A stretch of 64,000 nucleotides of DNA, taken from assembly GCA_004369045.1 (NCBI GenBank), contig ML213517.1:564757-628756 (forward strand), given 5' to 3'. This DNA is from Heliocybe sulcata. Taxonomy: Eukaryota > Basidiomycota > Agaricomycetes > Gloeophyllales > Gloeophyllaceae. Positions within the stretch are counted from its first letter, which is position 1; each line of letters starts with the position of its first letter. The notes beneath the pieces were generated by a model. It searched no databases, was not told where the DNA came from, and worked only from the letters and a program-made list of their open reading frames with translations. The position numbers were made by a program, and so were the translations under genes. This document shows positions 3,013 through 55,864 of this stretch, in pieces.

Positions 3013-5456
3013 ATGGTGCGTATCCTGTTAATCACGGAATTCTGCAGTGCTGAGTTGCTACCAGCCTGTCTGCACGGATTGCGGAGGAACTGTCATCGAA
3101 TACGATGCCGCAGCCGGAAACGGCTTCTGTGTACTATGTGGTACTGTCATCGAAGAAAACACAATCGTCTCGGAGGTGACGTTCGGGGAGACGTCCAATG
3201 GAGCGGCCATGGTCCAGGGATCATATGTCGGACTCGGGCAAAGTGAGTGGCAGCGATGACCAGACGTGTATCCATGGCGTTGATTTCACTAGCCCGAGCT
3301 CGCATGGGCGGACCACTCGGCAACAGAGGAAGTACTGAATCCCGAGAGCAGACGATCGCGAATGGTGAGGATATGCTGTGTGAGGTCCAGGCACTTACTG
3401 ACTATACTCTCGAAGCGAGCAGAAAGATTCAAGGTATCGCAAATGTCCTACGTCTGTCCGAGGTGGTTTGTTTAGCCGCGACGCGTCTTTACACGCTGGC
3501 TGTGGAGCACAAATTCACGAAAGGCCGAAAGAGCCTTAATGTTGTAGCAGTATGCTTATATGTCGCTTGTCGGCAAAAGGAAACCAAGAACTACATGCTA
3601 ATAGACTTTTCAGATCTGCTGCAGGTATACTTGTTCGCACTCCTTCCCTTCCGATGCGCATATACTTACCTTACGGCTTCAGGTCAACGTGTTTGAGCTG
3701 GGTCACACCTATCTGCAGCTAGTACAGACTCTCAACCTCCGTCTACCTCTCGTCGATCCGTCCCACTACATCTCCCGCTTTGCTGCCCTCCTTGAATTTG
3801 GCGAAGAAACCCACAAAGTCGCCATGGACGCCGTCCGTATCGTGCAGCGGTTTGACCGCGACTGGATGACGAAGGGGCGACGTCCCGCAGGCATATGCGG
3901 CGCCTCGCTCCTTCTCGCTGCGCGCATGAACAACTTCCGGCGGTCAGTGGAGGAAATTGTTCAGGTCGTAAAGATCGGGGACATGACGCTCAGGAAGCGC
4001 CTCGAGGAGTTCAAGCGCACGGGCAGTGCGGCACTGACGGTGAGCGACTTCAGGAACGTGTGGTTGGAGGACGAGATGGAGCCCCCGGCATTCACGCGGG
4101 CGAGGGAAAGGGAGGAGAAGGAGAGGGAAGAAAGGGAGAATCCGGAAAAGGCGAGAGAGGCGAGAGAGGCGAAGGAGAAGAAGAGAAAGAAGGGGAAGAG
4201 AAAGAAGAGAAAGAGAGGCGAGGTTAGTGATGAGGAGATGGAGGGCATGGGGGAGGCGGTGCCTATGGATATCTTGCCCGCTGAACCAGAACCGCCGCGT
4301 CCTCAAATTGATCCTGTGCTCTTAAACCAGGGTATTCTAGCTGGCACTGCGATGGAACCGTCCCTTGAGCCTCCGCAGGGGCCGTCTATGCCACCTCCGC
4401 TCTTCTTGCCAGAATATCATCCAGACGACCCTCCGATTGACCCCAGCACCGCCAACATCGACCCTGCTCTCCTGCCCTCCCCTACACAACATCCATCTCA
4501 CTCCTCCAGTGCGGACATGCTCACGCTAACTCCACCTCCACCACCCGATCCAGTTGACCAGCAGGCAAATGAAGTCCTCGCGCAGGAAGTCGCGAGTTTC
4601 CTGCTAAATTCGCAGGGAACGCAATTGACGGAAGTCCTCGATGACCGTGAACGAGCACGGTTAGCTCAGATAGGCGAAGTAGACGAGCTCATGGGATTGG
4701 ACGAAGCTGAGCTGGATGGGTTCATACTCAGTGAGGACGAAGTTAAGATCAAGGAGCGCGTGTGGGTTGAGCTGAACAAGGAGTATTTGGAGGCAATTGC
4801 AGGTACGTATATGATTGAGTTCGATGCAAAGAATTCCTGTCGTTGACTAGTGGCCATAGCTAGAGGAGATCTACAGGAGTCGGCTGAGAAGAAAAGCAAA
4901 AGCAAGAAGGTTCGTATCACGCTGGGAGCAAAATTCTGCTTCATCTCAGTTCCTCGTCCCGTTTCTTCCTGCTCACTCCTCATGCTTCTTTTAGCGACGC
5001 AAGACGGATAATAAGCCCAGAGACGCATCCACGCCAAGCGGAAGCACACCAGGCGAAGCCGTCCGCAACCTCATCAAGAAAAGCTCGAAATACAGTAAAC
5101 GGATCAACTATGATGCGCTCAAAGATATCTTCGACAAGACTGACGATGGGGCAGAAATTAATCTCGACGACAAGGACGACATGTATACTCTGGATGACAA
5201 AGATGACAAGAGCGATGGTGAGGGCATGCTTGTCGTGGAAGAGGGCGGAGGCGGCGTCGGCACGCTCTCCCAGCCACCTTCCGTGCGTCGATCGCCTAAC
5301 GCGCCGCAAGAACCGGTGCCGATGGACGAAGACGTCGAAGACGAGGACGCTGAAGGCGAGGAGGACGATGACAAGGGTGGAGAATATTCCCGCTGGCGCA
5401 CCCAGGAGGGAGAAGAGTATCACAACTGGGAAGACGCGTACGAGCAGGAAATTTGA
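3013..5456 (+). CDS. BRF1: BRF1, TFIIB-related subunit of TFIIIB
   Basis: BRF1 recruits RNA polymerase III to tRNA and 5S genes as part of TFIIIB (with TBP and Bdp1) in the nucleus. Seven exons are proposed: 3013-3015, 3065-3242, 3293-3364, 3416-3624, 3683-4802, 4860-4909 and 4995-5456 (2094 nt, 697 aa). The N-terminal zinc ribbon is VCTDCGGTVIEY ... FCVLCGTV. Two cyclin folds follow: RLSEVVCLAATRLY ... NVVAVCLYVACRQKE and ISRFAALLEFGEE ... RRPAGICGASLLLAAR. A long, very charged K/E/R linker (polypurine DNA) comes next. The Brf1-specific C-terminal homology block is present (ELNKEYLEAIA and KYSKRINYDALKDIFD). An acidic tail ends the protein. The start is unusual: the only ATG that gives a full zinc ribbon is a 3-nt exon directly followed by an intron (MPVCTDCGG after splicing). 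Confidence 0.95.
4101..4223 (+). repeat. Polypurine tract inside BRF1
   Basis: Nearly every base on the + strand is A or G over about 120 nt. It encodes an E/R/K-rich charged helix (EREEKEREERE-like) linking the cyclin folds to the C-terminal Brf1 homology region. Simple-sequence character; it could adopt triplex structure, but that is inference. Confidence 0.75.
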
Positions 5457-5740: not shown

Positions 5741-7530
5741 TCACTTCCCTTGAGGAGGGCCACCACGACCGCGTCCCCCAGGCCCACCACGTCCACCACG
5801 GAAGCCGCCGCGCATATCACGACCAGGACCGTTCATAGGGCGATTGCTCGGCGGGCGCTCGCCCCGCTCCTTCTTAGTCTCCACAACAATGCGCGCCTGC
5901 CCGCCACCCTCCACGTCGATCCGGATACCGCCCTCCCCGCCGACAGGAACAGGCAGCGACGCGATGATCGCGCGCTTCGCAGAGTTAATATCCACAAAGT
6001 CGAGGAACGCGCAAGCCTTGTTGCGTACGATCTCGACGTCCTTGACTTGCCCGAAGCGTTGAGTGAGTGCCTGGGTCAAAGCCGTCTGCGAGACGTTCTC
6101 GGTCACGCCCTATTTCACGGTTTGTCAGCATCAGCAAACATGACATTCGCGCGAGCTATACTACCTTCACGAAACAAGACGCATGTGTGATGTTCTGCGC
6201 AGCAGCAACCGCGTTCTGCGGTTCCCGTTGCTGCGGACCCCTCGGCGGACCCTGTCCAGCCACGGGCGTCTGTGCGCTGCTCCTCGGCGTCATAGGACTA
6301 GTAGGCACTTCGCTCGTGCCCCGGCTCTCAGTCGCGACCGCCGCGCCCCACTTCTTCGCGTTATTCGCAGCGAGGTTCGCCCAGGTCTTGGGCTGGGGCG
6401 GCTGCGCGGGAGGCAAGGACGGGGGAGCAACAGGAGCAGGAGAGACAGTAGTAGCTGCGGGCTCAGGCTCGGGCGCGGTGGTGGGCGGCTCCGGGGTGAG
6501 CTCGGGCTTAGCCTCAGGCTCGGGTTCTGGTTCGGGAGGCGCGGCGCCGTTGCCGTTAACGTGGGGGGCAAGGGCGGCGGGCTCAGAGGGCGCGGGTGTA
6601 GCGGGTGCGGGCTCAGGGATAACAGTTTTGGGCGGCTCCTCGGGCACAGGCGTAGGCGCGGAGGGCGCGGGTTCAGGTTCGGGCTCCGCAGGCGGAGGTG
6701 GCGACGGACTGGGTTCGACTAGCGTAGGCTCCGATGCTTGCTGGACGGGTGCGGCCGCGGGCGTCTGGACAGCCGGGGCGGAGGCAATAGGCTCGGCCGT
6801 GTCGGAGGCGGCGTCGGACTCGACAGTCTCTTCCTTGAGGAAGCGGAAGATGTCGTTGAGGACGAAGTAGCCGTTGGGCTGCTCGGCGAGGAAGAAGGTC
6901 TGCACGAATTTGCGCCATTCTTCGCCGCGGTTAGACATTTCGCCGATGACTTGGATGATGATCCCGCCTGAGGCGGAAGATTGTGCGTCGACGGAGTGGA
7001 TGAATACTTTGCAGTCCTGGAAGCCTATCGAGGTGATTTTGTTGTGGATTTCCTGGGTAAGGGTTAGTGACACGATTGCAGATATCAGAACTGATTCGAG
7101 AGCAAAAGGACTGCGGAGACCACGCATATACCATCCAATCCACGGATGAGACCACTGATATCCTCGTATAAAAGCATCGGACACATCTGCCTGCATATAA
7201 CACAGACGAATGTGAGGTTATGCGAGGTTATCAACGATACCTGGTTATTGTTTGGCACTCTTCCATAGTTCAAGAGATGTCATGATACGCAGAAGTGGTC
7301 AAATATCAGAGATGTGCTAAACCACATACCTGTTGACCGTAACATGGTTTGCCGTCTTCTCCCTCAACGCCATGGATGAAGGTAGAGGCTTTTGTATAAA
7401 ACCGATGCAGTCTATTCGGCTGCTGGTTCACATAAGTGTAGTACTGCGGCACAAACTGCCATCCGACTTCAGAAGGTACGACGTTCTGGTGAATACTGGA
7501 AGATGTACTCGTCGTGGTCGTGTTCGACAT
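5741..7530 (-). CDS. G3BP: G3BP-like stress-granule protein (NTF2 + RRM + RGG)
   Basis: Fungal G3BP orthologue (Nxt3 in fission yeast, related to Bre5), an mRNA-binding protein of stress granules that also partners the Ubp3-type deubiquitinase. Exons on the minus strand are 7530-7330, 7052-6165 and 6109-5741 (1458 nt, 485 aa). Residues about 15-135 form the NTF2-like domain: VGWQFVPQYYTYVN, then GQQ|EIHNKITSIGF across the first intron, then VDAQSSASGGIIIQVIGEMS and FVLNDIFRF. A long Pro/Glu/Ala-rich acidic linker follows. The RRM is split by an intron (THASCFVK|GVTENVSQTAL ... ACAFLDFVD), and the tail is RGG-rich (MRGGFRGGRGG). The first intron is about 277 nt, several times the local norm. 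The gene converges on BRF1 with 284 bp between stops. Confidence 0.93.
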
Positions 7531-19274: not shown

Positions 19275-21373
19275 ATGGCTGGCGCGTTTAGCGGGCATCT
19301 TGTGAATACCTTTGAGCAAGCTAGTCAAGTTCGAGCGCCATTTGGTCAACCAATAAATCCCAATTTGTCGATAAACGGCGCCATGTCGTTCAACCCCCAA
19401 GCGCACGGCAGTTTCATGTCATCGCAGCCCCCTTTGTCCTTCGCAAATGACCAGTCAGCATATATGGACTTGTCTCAGGAAACCGCACGAAAAGTCGCAG
19501 AACTCCAGGCAAAGCTCGACATGAGGCTTGGGCCAGAGTACATCTCTCAACGACCTGGACCTGGCGGAGGTCCGAAGCTCACCTACGCAGAGGGTTGGAA
19601 GATCATCAACCTTGCAAATGAAGTCTTTGGCTTCAATGGGTGGAGCTCTAACGTCGTCAGCCTGAGCACAGACTTCATTGATTTCAGTGAAGAATCGAGA
19701 CGGTATACGGTGGGCGTTACCGCGGTCGTGAGGGTGACATTGAGGGATGGGGTGTTTCATGAGGATATTGGATATGGGATGCTGGAGAATTCAAAGTCCA
19801 AGGGTGCTGCTCTAGACAAGGTGAGTTACAAACACCTAGCGGAATTGTTCGTTATTATAGTGCCGGGATATCACAGTGCAAAAAAGAAGCCGTCACTGAC
19901 GCCATCAAACGCGCATTGCGTAATTTTGGAAACCTCCTCGGGAATTGCTTGTACGACAAAGCGTACGCCCAAGAGGTAGTCAAGATCAAAGTGCCACCCG
20001 TGAGTGCCCTCTTCCTTAGTACAGCTGAGCGTCAATCATTCCATATGTTTCAGCCAAAATTCGACAAAACCAATCTGTACAGACGCCCAGAATTTGCGGA
20101 TCCGGGCTCTAGTAATGCTGCTCCGTCGATATCGAAAGTTCCTAATCCCTCATCTACTGGTGGAGGCCCTCCTTCCATACCGCACATATCACATACGTCT
20201 GTCAAGACTGAACCGGGCGCATCCACCTCAGCTCTGCCACCAAGACCAGCCCAGGTAGCCCAGCCGAACCCACAGCCCCCGGCAAATGTATCCAAGTGGA
20301 AGGGTAAGGCGCCGGATACGTGTACAAGACCCGCTGCGCAGAGCAACAACATCAGCGTGGCCCAGAGGACCGCATTCAATGGACCTGTTACTGCTGCTCC
20401 GACCAGAAATGTGCCGGCTCAACCCAACAATCCAGTGGCGCCAGACAGAGTACCAGAACCGCAACAGAAGCGAGTGACCTTTGCCCCAGGACCGGTATCG
20501 ACATCCACCCCCCAACCCCAAGACTCTGGACTTGCAGCAAAGGACTCGTTCACCTTCTCCTCAGACGACGACGCGTTCCAGCAGGTCGACTTGGGCCCCG
20601 CGGACTCGGGAGTGGGCGGGCACGTCGATTTTGACGAGGGGTGCGCTGGGGTCGACTTGTCTGCTGCTTCTGTGCAGGCGCGCTCGGGGTCGCCTGTGCT
20701 TTCTGGATCGAGGGCGGAGGTTGCGAATTCGGCGCCGAGCTCCGGGCCGCGAGGGCTGGCGCAGGGGTCAGGACAGCATACCGGCGCACGGGGTCCAGGG
20801 CAAAGTTCGGGACAGGGAGCACGGAACCAGGCGCCGCCCGGCGTACAACCTGTCGACACCGCTAATGGTGCCAACAACACTTTGCCTTCGAGCTCTGAGC
20901 AGAATACCGGATCGCTCGCTCCAGGGCAGAGACCAGGCAACCAGGTACCGCCCGGCGTCCAGCGTGCCAACCTTCCCAACGGCGCCACCTCGACTTCACG
21001 ATCCCGCGCAACTGCCGCTGCCATCCATGCAGCACTGCAAGACCAAGGTGGACAGCATACAAACCCGTCCACGGCTGGATTGAGTTCAAGTCGTCCACCT
21101 GCTCCGTCTCTAGGCGGGTTCCACTTCCCTCCGGGCATCAACCGCGCAGACCCTAACCAGCTGGGAAGACAATCGCGCGCTCGTCCGTCCGGCGAACCAT
21201 GTCCAACGGCAGGCATGAAGCGCCCAGCGGAGGCAATGGCTCCGCCCTCGCGGCCTCTACGAGGGGGTCCTGGGATGGGACTTGGACCGCCACAATTTGG
21301 GATGGCAAAGAGGGAGCCTTTTGCTGATCTTGAGATCGGAGAGGGAGGAGATGTGAAGAGAGTGCGTAGGTGA
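19275..21373 (+). CDS. RAD52: RAD52 recombination mediator
   Basis: Rad52 loads Rad51 on RPA-coated single-stranded DNA and anneals complementary strands in homologous recombination. Exons 19275-19820, 19877-19999 and 20054-21373 (1989 nt, 662 aa) have agreeing phases and GT-AG introns. The N-terminal ring-forming annealing domain lies at about residues 70-225: LTYAEGWKIINLANEVFGFNGW, SRRYTVGVTAVVRVTLRDG, HEDIGYGMLENSKSKGAA, EAVTDAIKRALRNFGNLLGN and CLYDKAYA (each quoted as a separate piece). The long C-terminal part is Pro/Gln/Ser-rich and disordered, where yeast Rad52 carries RPA- and Rad51-binding sites; its small-scale repeats (GVQ/GPGQ/PSS phrases) are low complexity. It converges with MAK5, 439 bp between stops. 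Confidence 0.95.
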
Positions 21374-21812: not shown

Positions 21813-24690
21813 CTATGCCTCAAACCCGTTCCACTCGTCATGCACAACCTGTTTCTTCGGCTTCTTTTTCTTAGCAGTTACGAGTTCGTCAGCCGCATCA
21901 CCCTTCATGACGCCTAGCATGGTCTCATGGTCTGCAACCAACCGATATCAGTCAACGCAGCCCTCGAAGAGCACAAGGATAGAAGACGCACGGTTGTGGG
22001 CGAGCATGTCATCGACAATGGGTCTACTGCCTGAGGTGATATACTTTGCCGAGATCCCCTTCGCGAGCAGGGGCTGCGCGAGAAGTCGCTTCAGCTCCGC
22101 TTTGAGAGCGCCGACCTTGGCACTGTCCTTGCGCTTCTTCGTAGGGACATCCGCGTCCTCGTCGTCGCTAAGGTAGCGAACTCAGCGTTCTCGGTACGTA
22201 TCACTGCGAACACAAAAGGTTCACCTGGGCGCAAAATCCGAATCCAACTGGATCTCCATGGCCTCTGCCGCCTCCTTGATCCAATTCTTCTCATAATTCT
22301 CCTTCTTCACCTTATGCTGTGCCTTATCGACCTGCTTTGCGACCTGTACTCTCGCCTTTAGTTTATCCAGCATGTGCAAGTCGACCATCATGTCAGAGAT
22401 TTCGCTTTCGTCTACCATGTATCGTCACTACGCTGCACCGACAGCGAGTACTCTTAGTAGCGACATACCTCTTCCAAGGCTACCGAGCAATGCCCTGACC
22501 ATCCTCCGCTCGTCAGGGGCACACATGAGCATACTGAATCCCTTGCGCATTGCACGCGCAGTACGTCCGTTACGGTGCACATACACATCCGCTGAGCGGG
22601 GAATCTGGTAGTGGATGACGTGGTCTACGGCGGGTACGTCCAAACCACGAGCGGCAACGTCCGTTGCAAGAAGGATCGAATTTTGAGTGGATTTGAAGCT
22701 GCCATAGGAATTGTCAGCAAAGAGAATGGACGGTGGGGGAGGAACAAGGCAAACGCGCACCGGTCGAGATTCTTGAGACGCTGCCGCTGCTCCAGCTGAG
22801 AATGCAAAGGGAAAGCTTTGACGTTGAGTAACTCCATCAGCGGCATTAGTCGTCGAATTCCGTCGATGGATGACAGGAACACGAGAGATCGCCCTGGGTA
22901 TCGCAATAGAAAGTAATATAGATACACATCCTAAGAGGATCAGGGAATGTCAGATCCGCGATAGTGCAGACATCGAGTAATTCACAACTCGCCTTGTCAG
23001 CGGATAAACACTCGATCTTGCCCTCCTTCAGAGTCGAGACCACGCCACCCTCGGGGCTGAGATCGATCACCTCTGGCTCGGGGTCGCGGAAATCAAGGCG
23101 CAGCAGAAGGTCGTCTAGTCCGAACAGTCAGCTCGGATTGTACTAAGAGGTGAGGATGGAACGAGTCACCTAGAGTAGACGCAGGCTTCGTCTTTGCCGG
23201 CTTCGACCGCTTGCGAATCTTCAAATTGCGCTGTAAATCCTTGCTCATAGTCGCAGAGAACACAAATGTCTGCATATGCTCTTTCTCTGCCGGGCTCTCA
23301 ACATCCTTGCCTTTCCTCAGTTCTTTGAATTCGGGATCCGTATCTTCCTGTCTGCACAGCATTCCACTTGAGTCTCGTCGCCAAAGAAAATTGAGAGAGA
23401 AACGCACTGAGAACTGCGCAAGGTCAAGCGCAAGATATGATCCAACTCCGCGAAGTGACCGGCTTGTACCATCCGGTCAGCCTCGTCGAGGACGAGGAAC
23501 CTGAGATTTTTTATCTCCCTGGCGAGCGTGTCATCCTACTTGCGTTGTCGTTGTCAGCCTATGTCGTACTATCATAGATGGTTGCCGAACCTCTTCGAGA
23601 ATATCCCAGAGTCGCCCGGGAGTCGCCACGAGAATATCAACGCCACGATCAAGGATGCGACGCTGCTTTTGCGCGGACATGCCACCCACGATCGCGGCGA
23701 CGCTAACGGGCGGCGGCGAACGGGCTTTGGATTTTGCTTGGCTCGGACCTGGCTCGCTCGCTTCTCGTTTCTTCTTGCTTTTACCTTTTCCATTGTCGAG
23801 CACCGATTCACTGGACGGCGTAGCATCGAGACTGACTTCGTTGAGGCAGGCGTTGAGATGCGAAGAAACTTGAACGGCGAGTTCTCGCGTGGGACAAAGA
23901 ATCAAGGCTTTTAATGTCCTTTTCGACTTTGGGGATCCGCGCACGCGACTGAGAAGGTGATGGAGGATAGGGAGACCGTATGCCAAGGTCTTTCCTGAAC
24001 CCTGAAACCAATATTCGTGAAAGAGATGCTTTGGCCAGAGAAGCGGGGGAACGCACCGTCTCTGCCACGCCGACAACGTCCCTGCCGGACAATGCAAGCG
24101 GGATGGCGCGAGACTGGATGGGAGTGGGCGCCGTGAATGTCTGTGCATATATTGATCGCAGTAGTTGGGTATGCAAGGGATAACTTTGCCATGCAGGTAG
24201 AAGATTCGCAGCTACTTTCTCGTCAGAGTCTCTTCGTGCATCTCTCTGGCGAAACTCACTGTCGAATGGCAGGCATTCAAGAGCCTGTGCCTCAGGCTCG
24301 ATCTCCTGTTCAAGCTCGTCGCTTTGCGCCTCTGCTTCATCGTTCCTTGCGTTGGCTTCGGGCGCCACAGCTTCACCCTGATCTTCTTCACTGTTCGGGT
24401 GCTTGTCTCCGTCGTTCGCAATCTAATAGAAATGAAGCAGGAACCCGGGGTAGGCGGACTTTACTCACATTAAACTTTGCGACTCTGCCTCCCTCCGTCT
24501 CCTCATAGACAACGTCGACTCCTTCTACCTCTTCCAGCTCCAATATACCATCCTCTGCGCCTAACCACGCCTCTTTCGACCTCGACACGGTTTTCCAGGG
24601 TAAAGTGTCAACATTCGAATGCCCAAGCTTAGGCCTTTTCTTGGACAGATTTGACTGTTTAGCCTTGCGTTTATTGATAGGATATTCCAT
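21813..24690 (-). CDS. MAK5: DEAD-box RNA helicase Mak5/DDX24
   Basis: Nucleolar ATP-dependent RNA helicase needed for 60S ribosomal subunit assembly. Minus-strand exons give the Mak5-type N-terminus ([16 protein letters not shown], then [15 protein letters not shown]) and an acidic linker. The helicase core follows: [20 protein letters not shown] (Q motif), [15 protein letters not shown] across an intron (motif I), [10 protein letters not shown] (Ia), [14 protein letters not shown] (Ib), [10 protein letters not shown] (motif II, DEAD), FVFSATMS (III) and HRNGRTARA (VI). The tail is basic, ending [18 protein letters not shown] before the stop at 21815-21813. Insertions between motifs Ia and Ib (a Ser/Lys-rich stretch with [13 protein letters not shown]) are typical of Mak5/DDX24. 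The start is the ATG at 24690-24688 ([12 protein letters not shown]). Confidence 0.93.
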
Positions 24691-36168: not shown

Positions 36169-38882
36169 TCAAGCATGGAACGTGACCTCCCACAATCTTG
36201 CACATGCGTCCGCGCCCGCACTCACTAATTTCCCTGCCTTTCCATCGCTCTCGAGCCAGAGAACAGAGTTGATACCTCCCGGCCCAGCATTCTTGATGGC
36301 GATGTTTCGCAGAGGCTTCTCCACACTCCAGACATACACATGGGTATCCAAGGACCCAGAGGCGCAATGCCGGCTGTCCGCAGTCCAGCTCAAGGAGTTT
36401 ATTCTACCGGAATGGAAAGACCACCGGGATGTGACGGCCTGCATGAGCGGAAAAAAAATTAGCATTGTCAGATAGAGTCTCCCGAGTGGGAGGAAGTTCA
36501 ATAGTGACCTTCCGTTCGTTGACATTGAATAACACCACTTTTCCGCTGGACTATCATTAGGATGCGTGAGCACGGTGTCACCAACATTTGCCAAGACGCA
36601 AAGCTTACATCGCCGGCTGCCAGGTAGGTACCATCTGGAGAGAACGCCACGGCCGTGACGTTCCCCTTGTTCCCCTCGAGTACCGCAAGGTCTTTCAACG
36701 CTTTCCCATCCCACTCGTGCAGATGAACTTTCCGATCCTATAATTCAGGCAAATTAGTTCATCAACCTGCGGACGTGTGATCGACGTGTCTGCTTACCTC
36801 GCCCCCAATTGCCACGCGCGTCTGATGTGCTGCCACACTGCTGGGCGCATATCCGACAGAAACGTCCGCGACCTTCTGATTGGATCGGATAGCTTCAATG
36901 GCGTTCACTTCGGCCACGAAGACCGTGCCGTCCGATGCTGCCGCCACCGATCTGGGCTGCGATCCTAACGACGAAGAGGCAGGCCTGTCACCCGATAAGT
37001 AACCGGGCGGTTCTCATGGAACACCAACCATCCCATACGCACGTGAAGTTTCTTTGCTCAATCTCGCGCAACTTATCATCGAAGCCGACGGAAACGACCT
37101 TTCCATCGGGGGCAGAGGACAAACCGGTCACGAGGCTCGTGTGGCCGTCACCGGCGACGTAGGCGGTTTCCCCGGTCCCAGCTGAGAACTGGACGAGGCG
37201 GCCTTCGGCGGTGCCAGCGAGGAACGTCTCGGACGAAGTTGGCAGCGCGGCGGTGATAGCCTTGGTCGGGCCCTGTGGAGATGGCAGTGATTTCAGCGAT
37301 AACCACGGGTGCAGCGAGGCTCGCTACGGGCATCGGGCATGAGAGGGACGCCACGTACGTTTATTATGCGTGTGGGCTTGTCTCCTACACGTGGGTCGAA
37401 TGCGTTGAGGTCCCCCGACATGGACAACGAGACCAGGCTTTCTGGTGTGAGCCACGCGTTTCCTACTTGCTGGTAATTAACGCCGGTTCCGACCTCCCAG
37501 CTGGATGTAACCTTTCTGGTCTCGACGTCCCCTACGCACGAGGCAGGATAATCAGTATATAGTCGGCAGATTGCGAAAACAATGATTTACATAGCTTCAC
37601 GGTGCAATCAAGCGACGATGTGACTATTGATTTGTTATCGGGGCTCCAGCTGCACGCCATCTTCCAGAGCACGATCGAGGAAGCGTCAACAGTCAGCATG
37701 CTAGGTAGCCGGTCCGGTAACTTACAATAGAGCCCTTGTGGCCGCTGTCTTCAAACTCGCCCAGGGTGTCACCGGTCTTCCCATCGTAGATGAATATTTT
37801 GGCGTCTGAGCCGACACTGACAAAGTGGTCCCCACTAGGGGAGTATTTCACATCTTGAACAAACTTGGTATGGGTCTTGATCGTCTGGGAAGGGGACCGG
37901 ATCACTCTTGACCCATATGACTGAACTCTATTGAACCTTCCGTACCTTGTCGAACTTGTACGGTGTACCTATGGTGAGTGGATCACGATTGTAAGAGCAT
38001 GGTCGACGTCCGCCGATCTCACGGCTCACCTTGATGGAAGATTATCTGCGTGTCATCAGATGCTGTAGCCGCCCGGAAGGGGCGCTGGGCCCGGATGGAG
38101 ACAGCATTAATGACCTGATGGAATGGATCGGTCAGGACGATAGCCCGGAAGGCGCAGCCACGCGCACCTTCGAATGACCGATAATTTCGCCGGTAGATGA
38201 TCCAGTGTCCATCATGAAGGCATGGCCGAACCTGCAGCGGAATTAGTGCTAGGAAACCGAAACAGTCTCCTGGCATACTTCTCACGACCATCTCCAACAG
38301 CAATAATCCGTTTGCTCTCGCCATCCCAGTCAAGATCGTTTCTATGAGGATACCACTAGTAAGTGGTCCCACGTACGTACAGAAAAAAGAAACAGGCGAA
38401 CATTCTTCCCGAGATAACCTTGTATTCACCCTTGAGACTGTTGTCTTCACCCACAGTGTCCCAGACGCGGACTTCGTACCGCGATGTTCAGTAAATCACG
38501 AGCGTCTGGCACGGACCAGGCTCACCCGTTCCAGACGCATCCCCTGAAGCACAGTAGTAGCCCGAAGGTGAAATCCGGGCGACAGTGGCGTTCTGCGTGT
38601 GTCCAGCATACGCGGTAGCAACAGCCGGATCCTGCGCATTTGGGTTGGCACAATCAAGTTACATTTTTTCGGAATCGTGACACCACGTACATTCAAGTCC
38701 CTGATCTAACGGATGATGCCCGACGTGAGACAAGTCCGGCAGCATTCTTGGAAGACGAAACGTACAATCACTGTCTTTCCGTTCGTGTATACGATCTTGC
38801 CTTTACTCGCGCTGAGCTTAGTAGATGCCCCACGGGTGGTTGTCGGGTTGCACGGGTATAGTCTCGCAGCCTTGAAAGACAT
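36169..38882 (-). CDS. AIP1: Actin-interacting protein 1 (AIP1/WDR1)
   Basis: AIP1 binds cofilin-decorated actin and speeds filament disassembly. It folds as two seven-bladed WD40 propellers, and the 600-residue-scale gene here fits. Many small minus-strand exons are used. The start MSFKAARLYPCNP leads into TKLSASKGKIVYTNGKTVI|IRDLN, DPAVATAYAGHTQNATVARI and SPSGYYCASGD. WD repeats follow: KVVNAVSIRAQRPFRAATAS, FVQDVKYSPSGDHFVSVGSD, SIVTSSLDCTVKLWDVETRK, NVTAVAFSPDGTYLAAGD and RINSLSWTADSRHCASGSLD. The end is GADACARLWEVTFHA. Spliced joints read smoothly across blades, so the gene looks intact. It sits head-to-tail behind MAD3 on the same strand. Confidence 0.95.
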
Positions 38883-39203
38883 GTTTGCAATTGCAACTAG
38901 CCGGAAATACTAGAGCTGTGTACAGATGGTATATGGTTACGATGGAGAGATCGACTGCCTGCGGCAGAGCACAGGGGTTCGGTGATCTGGGCGTATCTGA
39001 TCTGTGCGACTCCGGGATCTTCGAAACCTTTCCCGACAATGGAATTCCTCCCTCCTCATAGCGCCGACTACACGGAGGAACACATCGTATCGTACATACA
39101 TCAAGCACAAGCTCTTGTCATGAAAACATTATTATCAACATGCGTCGTCACGCCAGTCGCGGGTCTCACTTCCGTGAATCAGGCTGAGATGTAGCTGATT
39201 TAC
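38883..39203. other. Intergenic, AIP1 promoter side
   Basis: 321 bp between the MAD3 stop and AIP1 start, both minus strand. No gene seen. Confidence 0.5.
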
Positions 39204-41552
39204 CTACAGATCGTCACCCTCCAGATCAGGAAGCAGCGCCTTGTCGTAATTCTTGAAAGGATCCCTCCTCAATGCTTCCGCCTCCGTGGCTGCTACTGCA
39301 TCCGTAGTCCCAGCCTTCTTGATTTTAATCACTGGTTCGTCGGCGGAACTGCTCTGCTCAGCTGGGTTCGCCGTCTTATGGGAGTCAGCCTTACGAGCTC
39401 GATTGCTTCGGATAAACATGCGTCTCCTCACCTCGTCTCGGTAGGGCATGAACGTACCAACGCCCTTGCTCTCCGCTGCTTCCGCATCGACATCGCTATA
39501 CGGCGTAAAGCTGCGGGACTTCGCCATTCCTGGTGCTGGAACCGCTGGCCCAGCGTCGTTGTCGCAGAAAGGCGTGAAGCTACGCGTCTTCTGTGCAGAT
39601 TGAGACGGTCCTGCTACTGCCTTGCCCTTATTCTTCTCGGTCGGGACTGGCGGCGGCAGCATGCAGTTGACGTCGTCCCCCTCCGGCTCAGGGTCTACGT
39701 ACACCGGGATCTTGGCAGCAGTTGCTTTCGCGGACGTCTTCTTGCTCTTCTTGGCTGGTGGCATATTGCCCGCGTCTTCCTCTGGCTCGGGATCTACATA
39801 CACCGGGATCTTGGCTCGGTGGGATCTGGTAGGTACCGCGGCTGCCTTATTCTTCCTTTTCTCCGGGAGGGCTTGAGCTGGTATATCATTCGGACCGTCT
39901 TGGTCTGGCTCGGGATCAACATAGACAGCCATCTTGGATGCAGTCGATTTGCTAGCCGCCCTCTTGCTCTTCTTCGCTGGTGGTGCGTCATCGGCGTCGC
40001 CTTCCTCTGGGTCAGGATCTCTGTACACAGCCATCTTGGCTGCACTCGATCGGGTAGACCGCGCGGGCGCTTTGCCCTTCCCCTTTAGTATTTGTGGGCC
40101 ATCGTCCGCCTTGTCTTCCTCTGGCTCTGGATCAGTGTGCGCAGTCATCCTGGCTGCGACCGATCTGGTAGACCGCCTGGGCACCTTCTCCTCTGACGGT
40201 GCGGGTGGCATATCATTCGCCCTGTCTTCACCTGGCTCGGGAGCTCTGTATACCGCTGGTCTTACTGCAGTGGATCTCTTCGACCTGCTCGTTGCTGACG
40301 CGGCTTTGCCCTTCTTGGCCGGAGGTACGGGAGGCGGTGGCATCTCCTCAGCGCTGTCTTCTTCTGGCTCGGGATCCACGTACACAGCCACCTTGCCCTT
40401 CTTCTTCTCCGTCGCTACCGAGGGCAGCGGCATCTCCTCTGCTCCGTCTTCTTCTTTAACCTCCTGTTCCGGTTCGGGATCTCGATACACCGCAATCCTA
40501 GCGGCCGTCCCTGCAGGTGCAGCCAACCTCTTGCCCTTCCCTGAGTGTCGAAGCGTCGTCCCAGCCAAAGGCTTCACCTCTGGAACGTTCTCCTTTACCC
40601 GCGTGACCCGGGTCCCCACGTCCGGGAAGGGATTGATGGTACTCGATTCGGATGCTTCGCCAGTGGGATCGACGAATACTTGGAGGCGAGCGTTGGGCCT
40701 CGGACGAGGAGCAACCGTAGCTAGGGGTGGGATGTCATCTTCGTGAGGAGCGTCTGCAGCAGGGCGGGAAGTCGAGGCCGGTCGGGCCTTGGTACCCAGT
40801 GCCTTTCTCGACGTGGATGCCTCTGCTCGAGGTTCGGGTGCAGGGTCGTCCTCGGGGGAGGGTACCGGTGCTGCAACCATCATGCGCTTCTGAAACTCAT
40901 CGTGTTTCTTCTGCAGCCGCTCGAGTGGTTGTGCGTCGCGATTAATACCGAGTACATAGATTTTGTCGGCTTCTTCCCGGCTGTGAAATGTCACACACTA
41001 CAAGCGGCATAAGAGCATACGAGACACTCACCGCCGGCTCCTCTCCAGCGCCAAGGCAAACTCCTCATAGAGCAATGCGTATTTCGTGCCGATATCGTTC
41101 GCCAGACAGAAGCGGTAGATAATCGTGGGTCGTTCGATATAACTCGCATAAAGAACCCACAGCTTGAGATACCGTATATCGCTCCTCCACCTTCCATCTC
41201 TATCATCCTTCAACACCCTTGTAGCTTCTTCGAGCAGCTCCAGCAACCCCGACTCCGCGCTCTGCCCCTGCGGGTAGTTCTCCACCGTCCAGTACACGAA
41301 GCGGCAGTACGCCTCGAGCGGATCGTCGTCCTCGTCTTCCATGGCCACTTCTACGTTGATGCGGAGGCGGTTCTTGGTGGAGGCAAGGCGGGCTTCGCGC
41401 TGCGCGTGGGGGATGGAGAGGATCGCGGACAGGGCGGTGACGCGGCGGCCGGCGGCGATGGGCTGGATGTTCTCTTTGGCGGCTTCGAGGACGTCGCAGT
41501 CGACGATCGCGGCTGGGTTGGGGGCGTCGTCCACGAGGGCGGGAGGAGCCAT
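39204..41552 (-). CDS. MAD3: Mad3/BubR1 spindle assembly checkpoint protein with extended ABBA-like array
   Basis: Mad3 is part of the mitotic checkpoint complex and inhibits APC/C-Cdc20 as a pseudosubstrate. Exons 41552-41032 and 40980-39204 (2298 nt, 765 aa) join in phase 2. The first KEN box is at 41477-41469 (AAKENIQPI). It is followed by the Bub1/Mad3 TPR fold: DPLEAYCRFVYWTVENYPQG, YLKLWVLYASYIERPTIIY, TKYALLYEEFALALERSRR, and EEADKIYVLGINRDAQPLER. Then an ABBA-like site LQVFVD (40685-40668), the second KEN box (KENVPEVKP, KEN at 40595-40587), and eight spaced xAVYxDPEPE-type repeats (40496-39693). Three F-x-P-[FY]-x-D motifs close the series. No kinase domain follows, so it is the Mad3 and not the Bub1 member. 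The ATG at 41552-41550 is preferred over an upstream in-frame Met because it sits just before the conserved part. Confidence 0.93.
39435..40685 (-). repeat. ABBA-like motif array in Mad3
   Basis: Twelve hexapeptide motifs lie in one frame, minus strand: LQVFVD 40685-40668, IAVYRD 40496-40479, VAVYVD 40391-40374, PAVYRA 40259-40242, MTAHTD 40148-40131, MAVYRD 40034-40017, MAVYVD 39932-39915, IPVYVD 39809-39792, IPVYVD 39710-39693, FTPFCD 39578-39561, FTPYSD 39509-39492 and FMPYRD 39452-39435. The middle eight are each followed by [DA]PEPE-like acidic text and a Lys/Ser-rich spacer, with starts 99-132 nt apart. The last three match the published ABBA pattern F-x-[ILVP]-[FHY]-x-[DE] fully; the others differ mainly at the first position. 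Confidence 0.85.
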
Positions 41553-46886: not shown

Positions 46887-48140
46887 CTAGTACTTTGAGC
46901 AATCCAGGACCACCCGTCCTGCAATCTGCCCCTTCTCCATCCCCTCAAACACCTCCTTGAGGTCGCTCAAAGGCCTGCACTTGTAAAACACCTGCACGCG
47001 GCCGCGCGCGCCAATCTCCAGCGCCTCGTACGCGTCCTGGCGGTTGCCGACGTACGAGCCCAGGATGCTGATGCCCTTGAACACAGTAAAGAAGATCGAG
47101 GCGTCCAGCGTCGCCTCGCCGGGCAGCCCGACGGCCATGAGGGTCCCGCCGTTGCGCAGGTAGTCGACGGCCTGCGAGTAGGCGGCTCCGGTGGCGGCGG
47201 TGACGACGGCGGCGTGTGGGCCGAGGCCGTCGGCAGCAGCCTTGATGTCGGCGACGAGGTCCTTGGTCTCTCTGAAGTCGATCCACTTTTCAGCGCCGAG
47301 TTTTAGACAGAGCTCCTTCTTCTCAGCACCGGTATCTGCAAGCAGCCTGGTCAGACGGCGCAATCGAACCCGAGTCGAGCATAGCATACCGACTGCGATG
47401 ACACGAAGGCCCTTCTCGCGGGCGTATTGAATAGCCAGGTGCCCGAGCCCTCCGCCGGCGCCTGGGAGGACGATCCAGTCGCCGGTTTGCGTTTGGCTGT
47501 ACTTGATGGCGCGGTAGACGGTCACACCCTAACCATGCCAGAATCTCCCGTAAGAACCGAGTCCCCGGAGCGGAAGAACCCGAAGACGTACCGCGCAAAG
47601 AAGAGAAGCAGCCGAGGCATCGTCGATGCCTTCTGGGATCTTCGAGACGTGGTTGACGTAGGAGACGACGTATTGCTGGAAGGTGCCGTCGACGGTGTAA
47701 CCGCTGAGCTTGCAGTTGGCACAGCCTTGGGGAGGCTTTAATTAGACTGATGACCGAATAGGGAGGACGGGGTCGGACGTACATTGCTCAAGACCTTTCC
47801 GGCACTGTTCGCATTGCAAGCACGAGTCCGCGAGCCACTTGATGCCGACGCGGTCACCGAGCTTGACGGGGGACTGGGAGGTGTGCTCGCCGATGGCGAC
47901 GACGATACCGACGCCCTCGTGCCCGCCGACGAGGGGGTTCTTGGGCTTGACGGGCCAGTCGTGCTGCTTGGCGTGGAGGTCGGTGTGGCAGACACCGGTG
48001 AAGGTGAGCTTGACGAGGCACTCGCCGGGCTCGAGCTCGGAGGCCTGCTTGACTGGGTGGTCGGTCCTGACTTCGACGGCGGCGCCCGGTGCGGGGACGA
48101 CGGCGGCGACTTGGGTCTTTGGGATGTTGTAGGTGCTCAT
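46887..48140 (-). CDS. ADH1: Zinc-dependent alcohol dehydrogenase (ADH1 type)
   Basis: Medium-chain NAD+-linked ADH converting ethanol and acetaldehyde. Minus-strand exons start MSTYNIPKTQVAAVV. Catalytic zinc ligands are Cys in GVCHTDLHA and His in VGGHEGVGIVVAIG; structural zinc Cys residues are in SCLQCEQCRKGLEQC and ANCKLSGYTVDG. The NAD-binding loop is LPGAGGGLGHLAIQYAREKG, followed by LGAEKWIDFRETKDLV and GTLMAVGLPGEATLDASIFF, and the end is GQIAGRVVLDCSKY. All ADH landmarks are present. The start at 48140 is preferred because a TATA box lies about 96 bp upstream. An in-frame open stretch upstream of it contains that TATA box and so is probably not translated. Convergent with the Rrm4-like gene. 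Confidence 0.94.
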
Positions 48141-53094: not shown

Positions 53095-55864
53095 ATGATC
53101 CAGAACGCGCTCTTTCTCGTGCTCTCCATCCTCGGGCTCTACGGTCTCCAGCTCTTCATTGGGTACCGCCAGGGCGTCAAGAATATCGGGTGCGTCTCTC
53201 CTTCCTCTCTTCTCCCCTTTTCTTTCCGGTCTATTGATGCATGCGTATCATCGTGTAGCAATCATCCTGGCTACCGCACGCTCATCAGCGGCTCGTCCTT
53301 CCTAGGCAACTTCCTCCCGCCCATCCCGGGTATCGCACCAGGGAGGAATAGTCTGTTCAGGAGAAAACATGAAGGTACGGTCGCATCTCCCTCGTCCTTC
53401 TTCCCTATTTTCCTGTCCAATTTTCGACCTTTATTCTGTGGTGGCGCTCTTAAGGTCTTTACTGACGATAGCGTGCAGATCACGCCAAGTGGGGATGGGA
53501 CGTTATCTCGACAGTGCGTTGATCCTTCGCTCTCCATATACATTCAGAGTACCAACGTGTGATAGGTCTCGGCGTGGCCTAGAGTGCGATCCGGATATAG
53601 GCTTGCAGACGCAGCTGTTATCAAGGTAGACATTCTATCCCTAAACTCCCTGCTACTTTACTTGTATTTTGCTCTTATATGCTCTTTACGCCTCTCCCTC
53701 CCACAGTTTGTTTACATGTCCCTCTCTCCCATCTTCCCGTTCCGCCTCACAGTCCATACTCTTGCTACCCATCATTTCTCCCCTTTTCCACCTCCACCGT
53801 CCTGTTTCCCGTCTAAATCAACCATAACTTACCAGCCTTCCTTGAATTGTAGGAAGTAACCTCCGCCCGCGCACGCTTCCCCAAGCCCGTTAAGCAGTAC
53901 AGCGTCCTCACCTTCTTCGGGCGTAACATCGTCGCCAGCGAGGGCGAGGAGTGGAAGAGGTATAGGAAGATCACTGCGCCGAGTTTCTCAGAGGTAGGCA
54001 CCTCCTTTCCACATTACTCCCTCCCAGCTCTACATATTTCTTCTTTCCTGTCATCCCCACTTCCACTTCCCGTATTGCCTCATCACCGGGACTCCTCGCA
54101 TGGTTCCTTCCTATCTACCCGTTTTGGCTCCTCTGACGTTCATTGCCACTGACTCTTTAACGTCTCTAGCGCAATAACAAACTCGTCTGGGACGAAACCT
54201 GCCGCATCATGATGGACATGTTCGACAACGTCTGGCAATGGAAGGACGAAATCAGCGTCGACCACTGCGTCGACCTCACTCTTCCCGTACGCTCCTTTCC
54301 CCATCTCTCTTTTCACCTCCCCAGACTGACCCCTGTCTTCTCTCCTCGAAATACATTAGATCGCCCTGTTCGTGATCGGCGTCGCGGGCTTCGGCCGACG
54401 CATCAGCTGGAACGACGACATGAAGGTGCCCGCCGGGCACAAGATGACGTTCAAGGATGCTTTGCACATTGTCTCTACGGACGTGTTTCTGAAGCTGATT
54501 GTGCCCAAGTGGGCCATGGGCTGGACGGAGAGGTTTAGGAACTGTCAGACTGCGTTTGAGGAGCTCCGGGTGAGTACAGTACCTCGCTCTCGCCATAATT
54601 CGCATACCATCTTCGTCGTTGTGGGAGACGGACGAGGGCTGATATGAGACGTGGGTAGGAATATATGCTCGAGATGATTCGGGCCCGCCGAACTGCGGAG
54701 AAAAAAGAAGAGCGCTATGACCTCTTCTCGTCTCTCCTGGACGCGAGCGAGGACGATAGCGATGGGGAGGCGAAATTGGCGGATGAGGAGCTGCTCGGTG
54801 CGTCATTTATCGTTCCCTCTCGACAGCGAATTCACGCGTGGCTTGATGCGACAGGGAATATATTCATCTTCCTCGTCGCGGGGCACGAGACCACCGCGCA
54901 CACGCTGTGCTACGTGTTCGGCCTCCTGGCGTTGTACCAGGACGAGCAGGAGATATTGTATCAGCATATCAAGAGCGTGATTCCTGACGGGCGGATACCT
55001 GTGCGTAGCTCCTCCTTCTGCATTGCTTTCCAGGTGTACTGATAGGCGCAGACGTATGAGGAGATGAACAAGTTCACGCAGTCGATGGCGTATGTCCTCT
55101 CCTCTTCACACTCTATACCAAGAAGAAACTGATAGGCTGCATTCAACAGTGTGTTCTACGAGACCCTCCGGCTCTACCCACCCGTCCCCGCAATCCCGAA
55201 GCAGTCCGCAGAGGACACAACTCTCACAGTATCGAACGCATACGGGGAGAAAACCGTCATCCCCGTGCCCGCGGGCACGGACTTGGTCATCGCTACCCCG
55301 GCGCTACATTACAACCGTCAGTAGCCTTCTTCACCTTCGCCTCCTCATGTCTGGTTCCTCACGATGATATCATAGCGAGGTACTGGGAGGACCCGCATGC
55401 ATTTAAGCCGGCGCGGTTCCTGGAGAAGGACTGGCCGCGAGACGCGTTCTTGCCGTTCAGCGCAGGTACGCTCGCATATATCGACCCTGACCCTCATTCC
55501 GATCTGACCCTGCCACCCTCGATCTCACTCAATCACTCTGCGGGCAACCCTGAATCCCTCACGAACCGACGCATCCCTTCCTACCCCAGGCGCCCGCGCG
55601 TGCATCGGGCGGCGGTTCTTCGAGACGGAGGGCATCGCGATTCTGACGATGCTCGTGGCAAAGTACAAGATCGAGGTGAAGGAGGAGCCGCAGTTTGCTG
55701 CGGAGACCTTTGAGCAGCGGAGGGAGAGGTTGTTGGCGAATAGGCCGGGGTTGACGCTCACGTACGTTCACCTCACTCTGCCTTTGCTCGGAGTCCGTTG
55801 CTGATGCGCGTTTGCATGCTTTAGACCGCTGCGGGTCCCCTTAGTCTTCAAGAGGCGGGTCTGA
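53095..55864 (+). CDS. Cytochrome P450 monooxygenase, complete
   Basis: Class II microsomal P450. About 13 short exons are used. A hydrophobic anchor comes first (MIQNALFLVLSILGLYGLQ), then YRTLISGSSFLGNFLPPIPG, KQYSVLTFFGRNIVASEGEE and WKRYRKITAPSFSE (the WxxxR C-helix). FVIGVAGFGRRISWNDDM follows, and the I-helix proton-relay motif is in NIFIFLVAGHETTAHTLCYV. K-helix ETLRLYPPVPAIPK, PERF-like FKPARFLEKDWP and heme loop FSAGARACIGRRFFET with the Cys ligand close the core, ending RVPLVFKRRV. It shares sequence and intron sites with the partial P450 at the window start (GHETTAHTL, VFYETLRL versus AALYETLRL, LEKDWPRDAF), so the two come from a local family expansion. The substrate is unknown. 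It converges with ERG6, 237 bp between stops. Confidence 0.95.

What the first reader, a model, noticed from the sequence alone, without database searches (positions are those of the whole stretch)
39435..40685. Mad3 carries an expanded array of ABBA-like Cdc20-binding motifs
Seen: after the first KEN box and TPR fold, Mad3 has LQVFVD, then KEN2, then IAVYRD, the layout of the known ABBA-KEN-ABBA cassette. The second-site motif then recurs seven more times as [MIV]-x-V-Y-x-D-P-E-P-E units with Lys/Ser-rich spacers (two of them degenerate: PAVYRA and MTAHTD). Three full F-x-P-[FY]-x-D matches follow. Established: ABBA motifs (F-x-[ILVP]-[FHY]-x-[DE]) in BubR1/Mad3 bind the Cdc20 propeller and normally occur in small number. 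Inference: the array could raise local avidity for one or several Cdc20 molecules, or act as a phospho-tunable comb. The conserved flanks (DPEPE) suggest selection on more than the hexamer.
Basis: partly seen in the sequence, partly recalled or inferred. Interest (0 to 1): 0.78.

Follow-up and report, generated by a model that had tools for sequence, protein, structure and literature searches.

The report
Mad3 with many Cdc20-docking motifs
A fungal-type cell-division checkpoint protein carries a long row of short motifs that look like docking sites for its target Cdc20 and appear to be kept by selection; such rows were already reported for this protein in basidiomycete fungi, but I found no test of what the extra copies do.

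Summary
The minus-strand gene at 41552..39204 (one inferred 51-base intron, 765 aa) is a Mad3/BubR1-type protein (Pfam Mad3_BUB1_I, E 1.5e-35; best solved relative S. pombe Mad3). After KEN1 and the TPR region come ABBA1 (LQVFVD), KEN2, eight [MIVP]-x-[VA]-[YH]-x-[DA]-P-[ED]-P units (six intact, two degenerate) and three strict F-x-P-[FY]-x-D motifs. The 552-aa tail holds 11 relaxed ABBA matches; shuffles average 0.14 and 0 of 20000 reach 11. Synonymous sites between units are strongly diverged, yet the core has pN/pS 0.33 (V, Y, D positions 0.14) against 0.96 in the upstream spacer, which argues for selection on the docking core. The kind is not new: Tromer et al. 2016 (PMC5204127) report ABBA motifs 'in repeat arrays (e.g. 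[quoted passage not shown] Human ABBA272 reads ITVFDE, so an aliphatic first residue is ordinary. An ideal-chain estimate gives the extra copies only about 1.5-fold on one anchored Cdc20, so capture or recruitment of further Cdc20 seems likelier than avidity. No eukaryotic relatives could be fetched; cross-species copy number and Cdc20 contact remain untested.

The parts
39204..41552 (-). Mad3 gene: two exons (41552..41032 and 40980..39204), inferred intron 41031..40981; 765 aa
   Evidence: Pfam Mad3_BUB1_I E 1.5e-35; phmmer to 4aez_C S. pombe Mad3 E 6.5e-35
41469..41477 (-). KEN1 (aa 26-28, AAKENIQP)
   Evidence: aligned to SKENIEP of 4aez_C and SKENVQP of human BubR1
40797..40808 (-). RKAL (aa 232-235), D-box candidate only
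   Evidence: RxxL pattern; not otherwise tested
40668..40685 (-). ABBA1, LQVFVD (aa 273-278)
   Evidence: aligned residue for residue to human ITVFDE
40620..40637 (-). INPFPD (aa 289-294), extra relaxed ABBA match between ABBA1 and KEN2; may be chance
40587..40595 (-). KEN2 (aa 303-305)
40470..40496 (-). ABBA2 = array unit 1, IAVYRDPEP (aa 336-344)
40365..40391 (-). array unit 2, VAVYVDPEP (aa 371-379)
40233..40259 (-). array unit 3, degenerate, PAVYRAPEP (aa 415-423)
40122..40148 (-). array unit 4, degenerate, MTAHTDPEP (aa 452-460)
40008..40034 (-). array unit 5, MAVYRDPDP (aa 490-498)
39906..39932 (-). array unit 6, MAVYVDPEP (aa 524-532)
39783..39809 (-). array unit 7, IPVYVDPEP (aa 565-573)
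39684..39710 (-). array unit 8, IPVYVDPEP (aa 598-606)
39561..39578 (-). strict ABBA, FTPFCD (aa 642-647), with an internal TP site
39492..39509 (-). strict ABBA, FTPYSD (aa 665-670), with an internal TP site
39435..39452 (-). strict ABBA, FMPYRD (aa 684-689)

Best explanation
[quoted passage not shown] Shown here: the anatomy, the excess over chance, and the conservation of V, Y and D between units while synonymous sites diverged. Inferred: ABBA1, KEN2 and unit 1 do the usual work of holding two Cdc20 molecules in the checkpoint complex bound to the APC/C, and the further intact copies are weak, interchangeable Cdc20 docking sites on a flexible tail. They raise Cdc20 capture (recruitment, rebinding or holding of extra Cdc20) and so adjust checkpoint strength by copy number, much as MELT repeats do in Spc105/KNL1.
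For: Mad3 family and layout. Gaps ABBA1-KEN2 and KEN2-unit 1 of 24 and 30 residues, against 26 and 33 in human BubR1 (my count: ABBA 272-277 and KEN 304-306 in the alignment, ABBA340 by its name). Human ABBA272 reads ITVFDE in 5khu_Q and 6tlj_S, so an aliphatic first residue is compatible with Cdc20 binding. Core pN/pS 0.33 (all eight units) against 0.96 in the upstream spacer; positions 3, 4 and 6 of the hexamer 0.14 in all eight; 0 of 2000 column permutations reach the core-spacer difference in pN. 14 of the 18 F or Y residues of the tail lie in the named hexamers, 15 with INPFPD (my count from the list). Arrays of ABBA in basidiomycete MAD reported by Tromer et al. (PMC5204127, section 4 read). 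Human ABBA272 and ABBA340 peptides bind Cdc20 and the motifs are needed for APC/C inhibition (PMC5179498, passages).
Against: No binding data and no Cdc20 of this organism. Position 1 of the hexamer, one of the three non-polar anchoring residues in the Acm1-Cdh1 structure (PMC5717348, passage), is F in none of the eight units (I, V, P, M, M, M, I, I). P-x-P of the flank is kept in eight of eight units, also in the two with a broken hexamer, so another partner may read the flank. The KEN2-flanking tryptophans described by Tromer et al. are absent (no W in aa 214-765). The spacer columns are aligned without gaps and may not be homologous, so their ratio near 1 is partly expected. The test compares copies within one gene, not orthologues. 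Kinetochore recruitment through Mad3 would need a Bub3 link, and no GLEBS family was hit at E up to 1.
Confidence: 0.66

Rival explanations
1. Avidity on the same Cdc20: the copies only raise the effective concentration of an ABBA ligand at the one or two Cdc20 molecules already held by KEN1 and KEN2.
For: The ABBA groove lies between blades 2 and 3 of the propeller, and modular weak sites are the accepted picture (PMC5179498 and PMC5717348, passages).
Against: An ideal-chain L^-1.5 estimate gives only 1.52-fold for six intact units and 1.60-fold with the three strict motifs, relative to unit 1 alone; distant copies add little. The estimate ignores charge and any second anchor.
Confidence: 0.35
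2. Neutral repeat growth: a coding repeat expanded and drifts; only the first unit matters.
For: Two of eight units are degenerate; spacing varies from 33 to 44 residues.
Against: Core pN/pS 0.33 and positions 3, 4 and 6 at 0.14 over all eight units with pS 0.71 at those positions; column permutation 0 of 2000.
Confidence: 0.15
3. The flank is the selected part: the repeated basic-hexamer-acidic block serves another partner, for example a nuclear import receptor reading KKSKK-like patches or an unknown reader of PEPE, with the ABBA likeness partly incidental.
For: P-x-P in eight of eight units; flank pN/pS 0.23; net charge +3 to +6 in the 14 residues before the hexamer and -3 to -7 in the 13 residues from its sixth position on, in all eight units. 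KKSKR/KKSKK occurs in the spacers before two units.
Against: Positions 3, 4 and 6, those mutated to kill Cdc20 binding in PMC5179498 (legend), have pN/pS 0.14, lower than the flank's 0.23 and than positions 1, 2 and 5 (0.76) over all eight units. Three further ABBA motifs lack the PEPE flank.
Confidence: 0.17

Closest known systems
ABBA repeat arrays in MAD paralogues of basidiomycetes, Physcomitrella and stramenopiles (Tromer et al. 2016, PMC5204127; section 4 read)
   Same: Mad3-type protein with ABBA motifs in a repeat array besides the ABBA1-KEN2-ABBA2 cassette; third position often proline, as in the FxP[FY]xD motifs here
   Different: Section 4 gives no copy numbers or unit sequences for basidiomycetes; the V-Y-x-D-P-E-P unit could not be compared with their figures or supplements, which I could not see
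Human BubR1 ABBA272-KEN2-ABBA340 cassette (Di Fiore et al. 2016, PMC5179498; passages)
   Same: Order and approximate spacing; aliphatic first residue (ITVFDE)
   Different: Human BubR1 has three ABBA motifs; here ten intact (ABBA1, six units, three strict) plus two degenerate; no tryptophans around KEN2
MELT repeat array of Spc105/KNL1 (Roy et al. 2020, PMC7292645; abstract and outline seen)
   Same: Many copies of a checkpoint docking motif of varied strength; copy number bears on checkpoint strength; degeneration of copies
   Different: Different motif, partner (Bub3-Bub1) and protein

Membership tests
Mad3/BubR1 | N-terminal TPR homology region | tested here: met
   Pfam Mad3_BUB1_I E 1.5e-35, 122.2 bits against cut-off 31.4; 4aez_C E 6.5e-35
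Mad3/BubR1 | KEN1 before the TPR | tested here: met
   aa 26-28, aligned to KEN1 of S. pombe Mad3 and human BubR1
Mad3/BubR1 | ABBA1-KEN2-ABBA2 order | tested here: met
   aa 273-278, 303-305, 336-341; first residues are L and I, not F
Mad3/BubR1 | Tryptophans flanking KEN2 (Tromer et al.) | tested here: not met
   No W in aa 214-765; in the alignment human W295 faces D294 (F292 lies two residues before) and W313 faces L312. Taken as a detail of the cassette; the family call rests on the TPR, KEN1 and motif order
Mad3/BubR1 | No kinase domain (MAD paralogue) | tested here: met
   No kinase family in the 765-aa protein at E up to 1
Mad3/BubR1 | GLEBS Bub3-binding motif (kept in some MAD proteins) | tested here: inconclusive
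   No Pfam hit at E up to 1; the motif is short
ABBA motif | Strict F-x-[ILVP]-[FHY]-x-[DE] | tested here: inconclusive
   Met by three motifs (642, 665, 684) and by none of the eight units, which have I, V, M or P first; the functional human ABBA272 has I
ABBA motif | Binding to the groove between blades 2 and 3 of Cdc20 | not testable with these tools
   No Cdc20 of this organism and no complex prediction available
ABBA repeat array of basidiomycete MAD | Multiple ABBA motifs beyond ABBA1 and ABBA2 in a MAD protein | tested here: met
   Five further intact and two degenerate units plus three strict motifs, with the relaxed first position for the units
ABBA repeat array of basidiomycete MAD | Host is a basidiomycete | not tested

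The most novel reading that the evidence does not exclude
The array lets one Mad3 hold several Cdc20 molecules at once, a stoichiometric Cdc20 sponge in which copy number, and the mix of intact and worn units, sets checkpoint strength; the basic-hexamer-acidic unit is an extended Cdc20-binding module, and CDK phosphorylation within the two FTP motifs switches a separate C-terminal pair.
Probability: 0.25. Interest if true: 0.65.

Novelty: new member of a known kind. Interest (0 to 1): 0.36.

Why it matters
If the extra copies hold more Cdc20, the usual picture of one Mad3 and two Cdc20 in the inhibited APC/C would not be the whole story in these fungi, and checkpoint strength could be tuned by motif number. 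The gene offers several units of one motif in one protein, with two worn copies as built-in controls. As a discovery it is modest, because ABBA arrays in basidiomycete MAD proteins are in print.

Tried and rejected
Own-genome search: no genome held. Relatives of the TPR region (aa 1-207): viral contigs 10 pattern matches, none confirmed; genome contigs 86 pattern matches, none confirmed. Both collections (viral; bacterial and archaeal) are poor places for a fungal gene, so this says nothing about orthologues.

Tandem repeat finder at DNA level: nothing. A hidden intron removing part of the array: a pattern search limited to in-frame lengths found one candidate in the tail, 96 bases from aa 682 on, outside the eight units; if real it would remove FMPYRD; not ruled out, and other kinds of intron were not sought. 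Duplication history: adjacent units are only slightly more alike than others (mean identity 0.43 against 0.38); no order inferred. MadaM motif of Tromer et al.: its sequence is not given in the text that I read, and one search found no other paper; not tested. Structure prediction was not run: one sequence without relatives, mostly tail, would say little, and a complex with Cdc20 was not possible.

Pfam hits below cut-off: Toprim_3 over aa 360-430 (17.2 bits, cut-off 27.2), taken as composition noise, and Mad3_BUB1_I_2 (13.2 bits, cut-off 37.6).

Full report
Observation. The minus-strand reading frame gives a 765-aa protein with one inferred 51-base intron. The eight units start at aa 336, 371, 415, 452, 490, 524, 565 and 598, with spacing of 35, 44, 37, 38, 34, 41 and 33 residues. 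Units 3 and 4 are degenerate. Three strict motifs follow at 642, 665 and 684.

Identity. Pfam Mad3_BUB1_I covers aa 68-186 (E 1.5e-35), and no kinase family was hit at E up to 1. By sequence (query aa 1-361), the best solved relative is S. pombe Mad3 (4aez_C, E 6.5e-35); human BubR1 (5khu_Q, 6tlj_S) aligns over query aa 14-327, including KEN1, ABBA1 and KEN2. In that alignment LQVFVD faces human ITVFDE at 272-277, so a first residue other than F is found in a motif shown to bind Cdc20 (PMC5179498, passages). The tail has no tryptophan, so the two tryptophans that Tromer et al. describe around KEN2 are missing.

Chance. The relaxed pattern occurs 11 times in the 552-residue tail; 20000 shuffles average 0.139, with a maximum of 3. 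The strict pattern occurs 3 times; shuffles average 0.013, with a maximum of 1. In the 534 other ORFs of at least 60 aa in the window (55119 aa, shadow frames included) there are 19 relaxed and 0 strict matches. Among those, two hold an [YF]-x-D-P-[ED]-P string, at 55060..55710 (+) and 22849..23127 (-); each has it once.

Selection. Comparing the eight units codon by codon (28 pairs), synonymous differences are high in every stretch measured (pS 0.59-0.71). Non-synonymous differences are low in the core (pN 0.21, ratio 0.33) and high in the upstream spacer (pN 0.57, ratio 0.96) and downstream spacer (pN 0.55, ratio 0.85). Hexamer positions 3, 4 and 6, those mutated in the control peptides of PMC5179498 (legend seen), have a ratio of 0.14 in all eight units; positions 1, 2 and 5 have 0.76. 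In the six intact units the two sets have 0.00 and 0.65, but those units were chosen for having V, Y and D, so the 0.00 is by choice and the value for all eight is the fair one. Shuffling columns between core and spacer reached the observed difference in pN in 0 of 2000 trials. Spacer columns may not be homologous, so their ratio near 1 is a weak yardstick. The acidic flank is also constrained (0.23), and P-x-P is kept in all eight units. Position 1, an anchoring residue in the Acm1-Cdh1 structure (PMC5717348, passage), varies among I, V and M in seven units and is P in one.

Unit design. Each unit has a basic stretch before the hexamer (+3 to +6 in 14 residues) and an acidic one from its sixth position on (-3 to -7 in 13 residues), in eight of eight units. 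The tail's SP/TP sites are at 215, 643 and 666 only; the last two lie inside FTPFCD and FTPYSD. [RK]-x-[ST] sites stand in the 14 residues before five of eight units. A CDK-tuned comb is therefore not supported for the array, while CDK control of the two FTP motifs is possible.

Mechanism. The cassette ABBA1-KEN2-unit 1 has gaps of 24 and 30 residues; human BubR1 has 26 and 33 by my count. [quoted passage not shown] For the extra copies, an ideal-chain estimate gives only a 1.5- to 1.6-fold gain at a Cdc20 anchored by KEN2. That makes plain avidity a weak reason for keeping them and favours capture of further Cdc20 or recruitment of Cdc20. This step is inference. The MELT array of Spc105/KNL1, where motif number and affinity set the balance of checkpoint strength and responsiveness (PMC7292645, abstract), is the nearest functional parallel.

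Prior knowledge. Tromer et al. 2016 state that ABBA motifs occur 'in repeat arrays (e.g. [quoted passage not shown] They list MadBub duplications in pucciniomycetes and in agaricomycetes (excluding early branching species). I searched for other work on such arrays (20 of 20 papers listed; 20 of 36 listed; 1 of 1; 12 of 34 listed; 1 of 1). In the titles and the beginnings of abstracts listed I saw none about testing such arrays. I opened seven papers in all: section 4 of PMC5204127, the abstract and outline of PMC7292645, and passages of PMC5179498, PMC5409178, PMC5717348, PMC9357983 and PMC11286163. Most subscription journals are not held, so absence of a test in print is not shown. The present gene is thus a new member of a known kind; what is added is the unit sequence, the count and the codon-level sign of selection on the docking core.

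Limits. No genome is held for the window, no eukaryotic relatives could be fetched, and no Cdc20 complex could be modelled. The organism was not established here. The last strict motif depends on there being no intron near aa 682.

Noticed in passing
window 37500-38900, minus strand: Next to Mad3 lies what looks like an intron-rich WD40 gene; a 91-aa piece (37696-37968) hits Pfam WD40 (E 1.3e-06). From recall its N-terminus resembles the actin-interacting protein AIP1; not checked.
   Followed up: partly
window 3605-4843 (+), 19763-21370 (+), 6159-7217 (-), 46890-47528 (-): ORFs hitting TFIIB/BRF1, Rad52_Rad22, NTF2 and zinc-binding dehydrogenase families: ordinary eukaryotic-looking genes.
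   Followed up: no
window 39561-39578 and 39492-39509 (-): FTPFCD and FTPYSD share an RSFTP[FY]xDxDA block and carry the only SP/TP sites after aa 215: a second, small sub-array that CDK might switch.
   Followed up: partly
window 22849-23127 (-): An ORF holds [10 protein letters not shown], a lone look-alike of the array flank; whether it is a gene was not tested.
   Followed up: partly
window 40620-40637 (-): INPFPD between ABBA1 and KEN2; in the alignment its D294 faces human W295, the tryptophan before KEN2, with F292 two residues before.
   Followed up: partly
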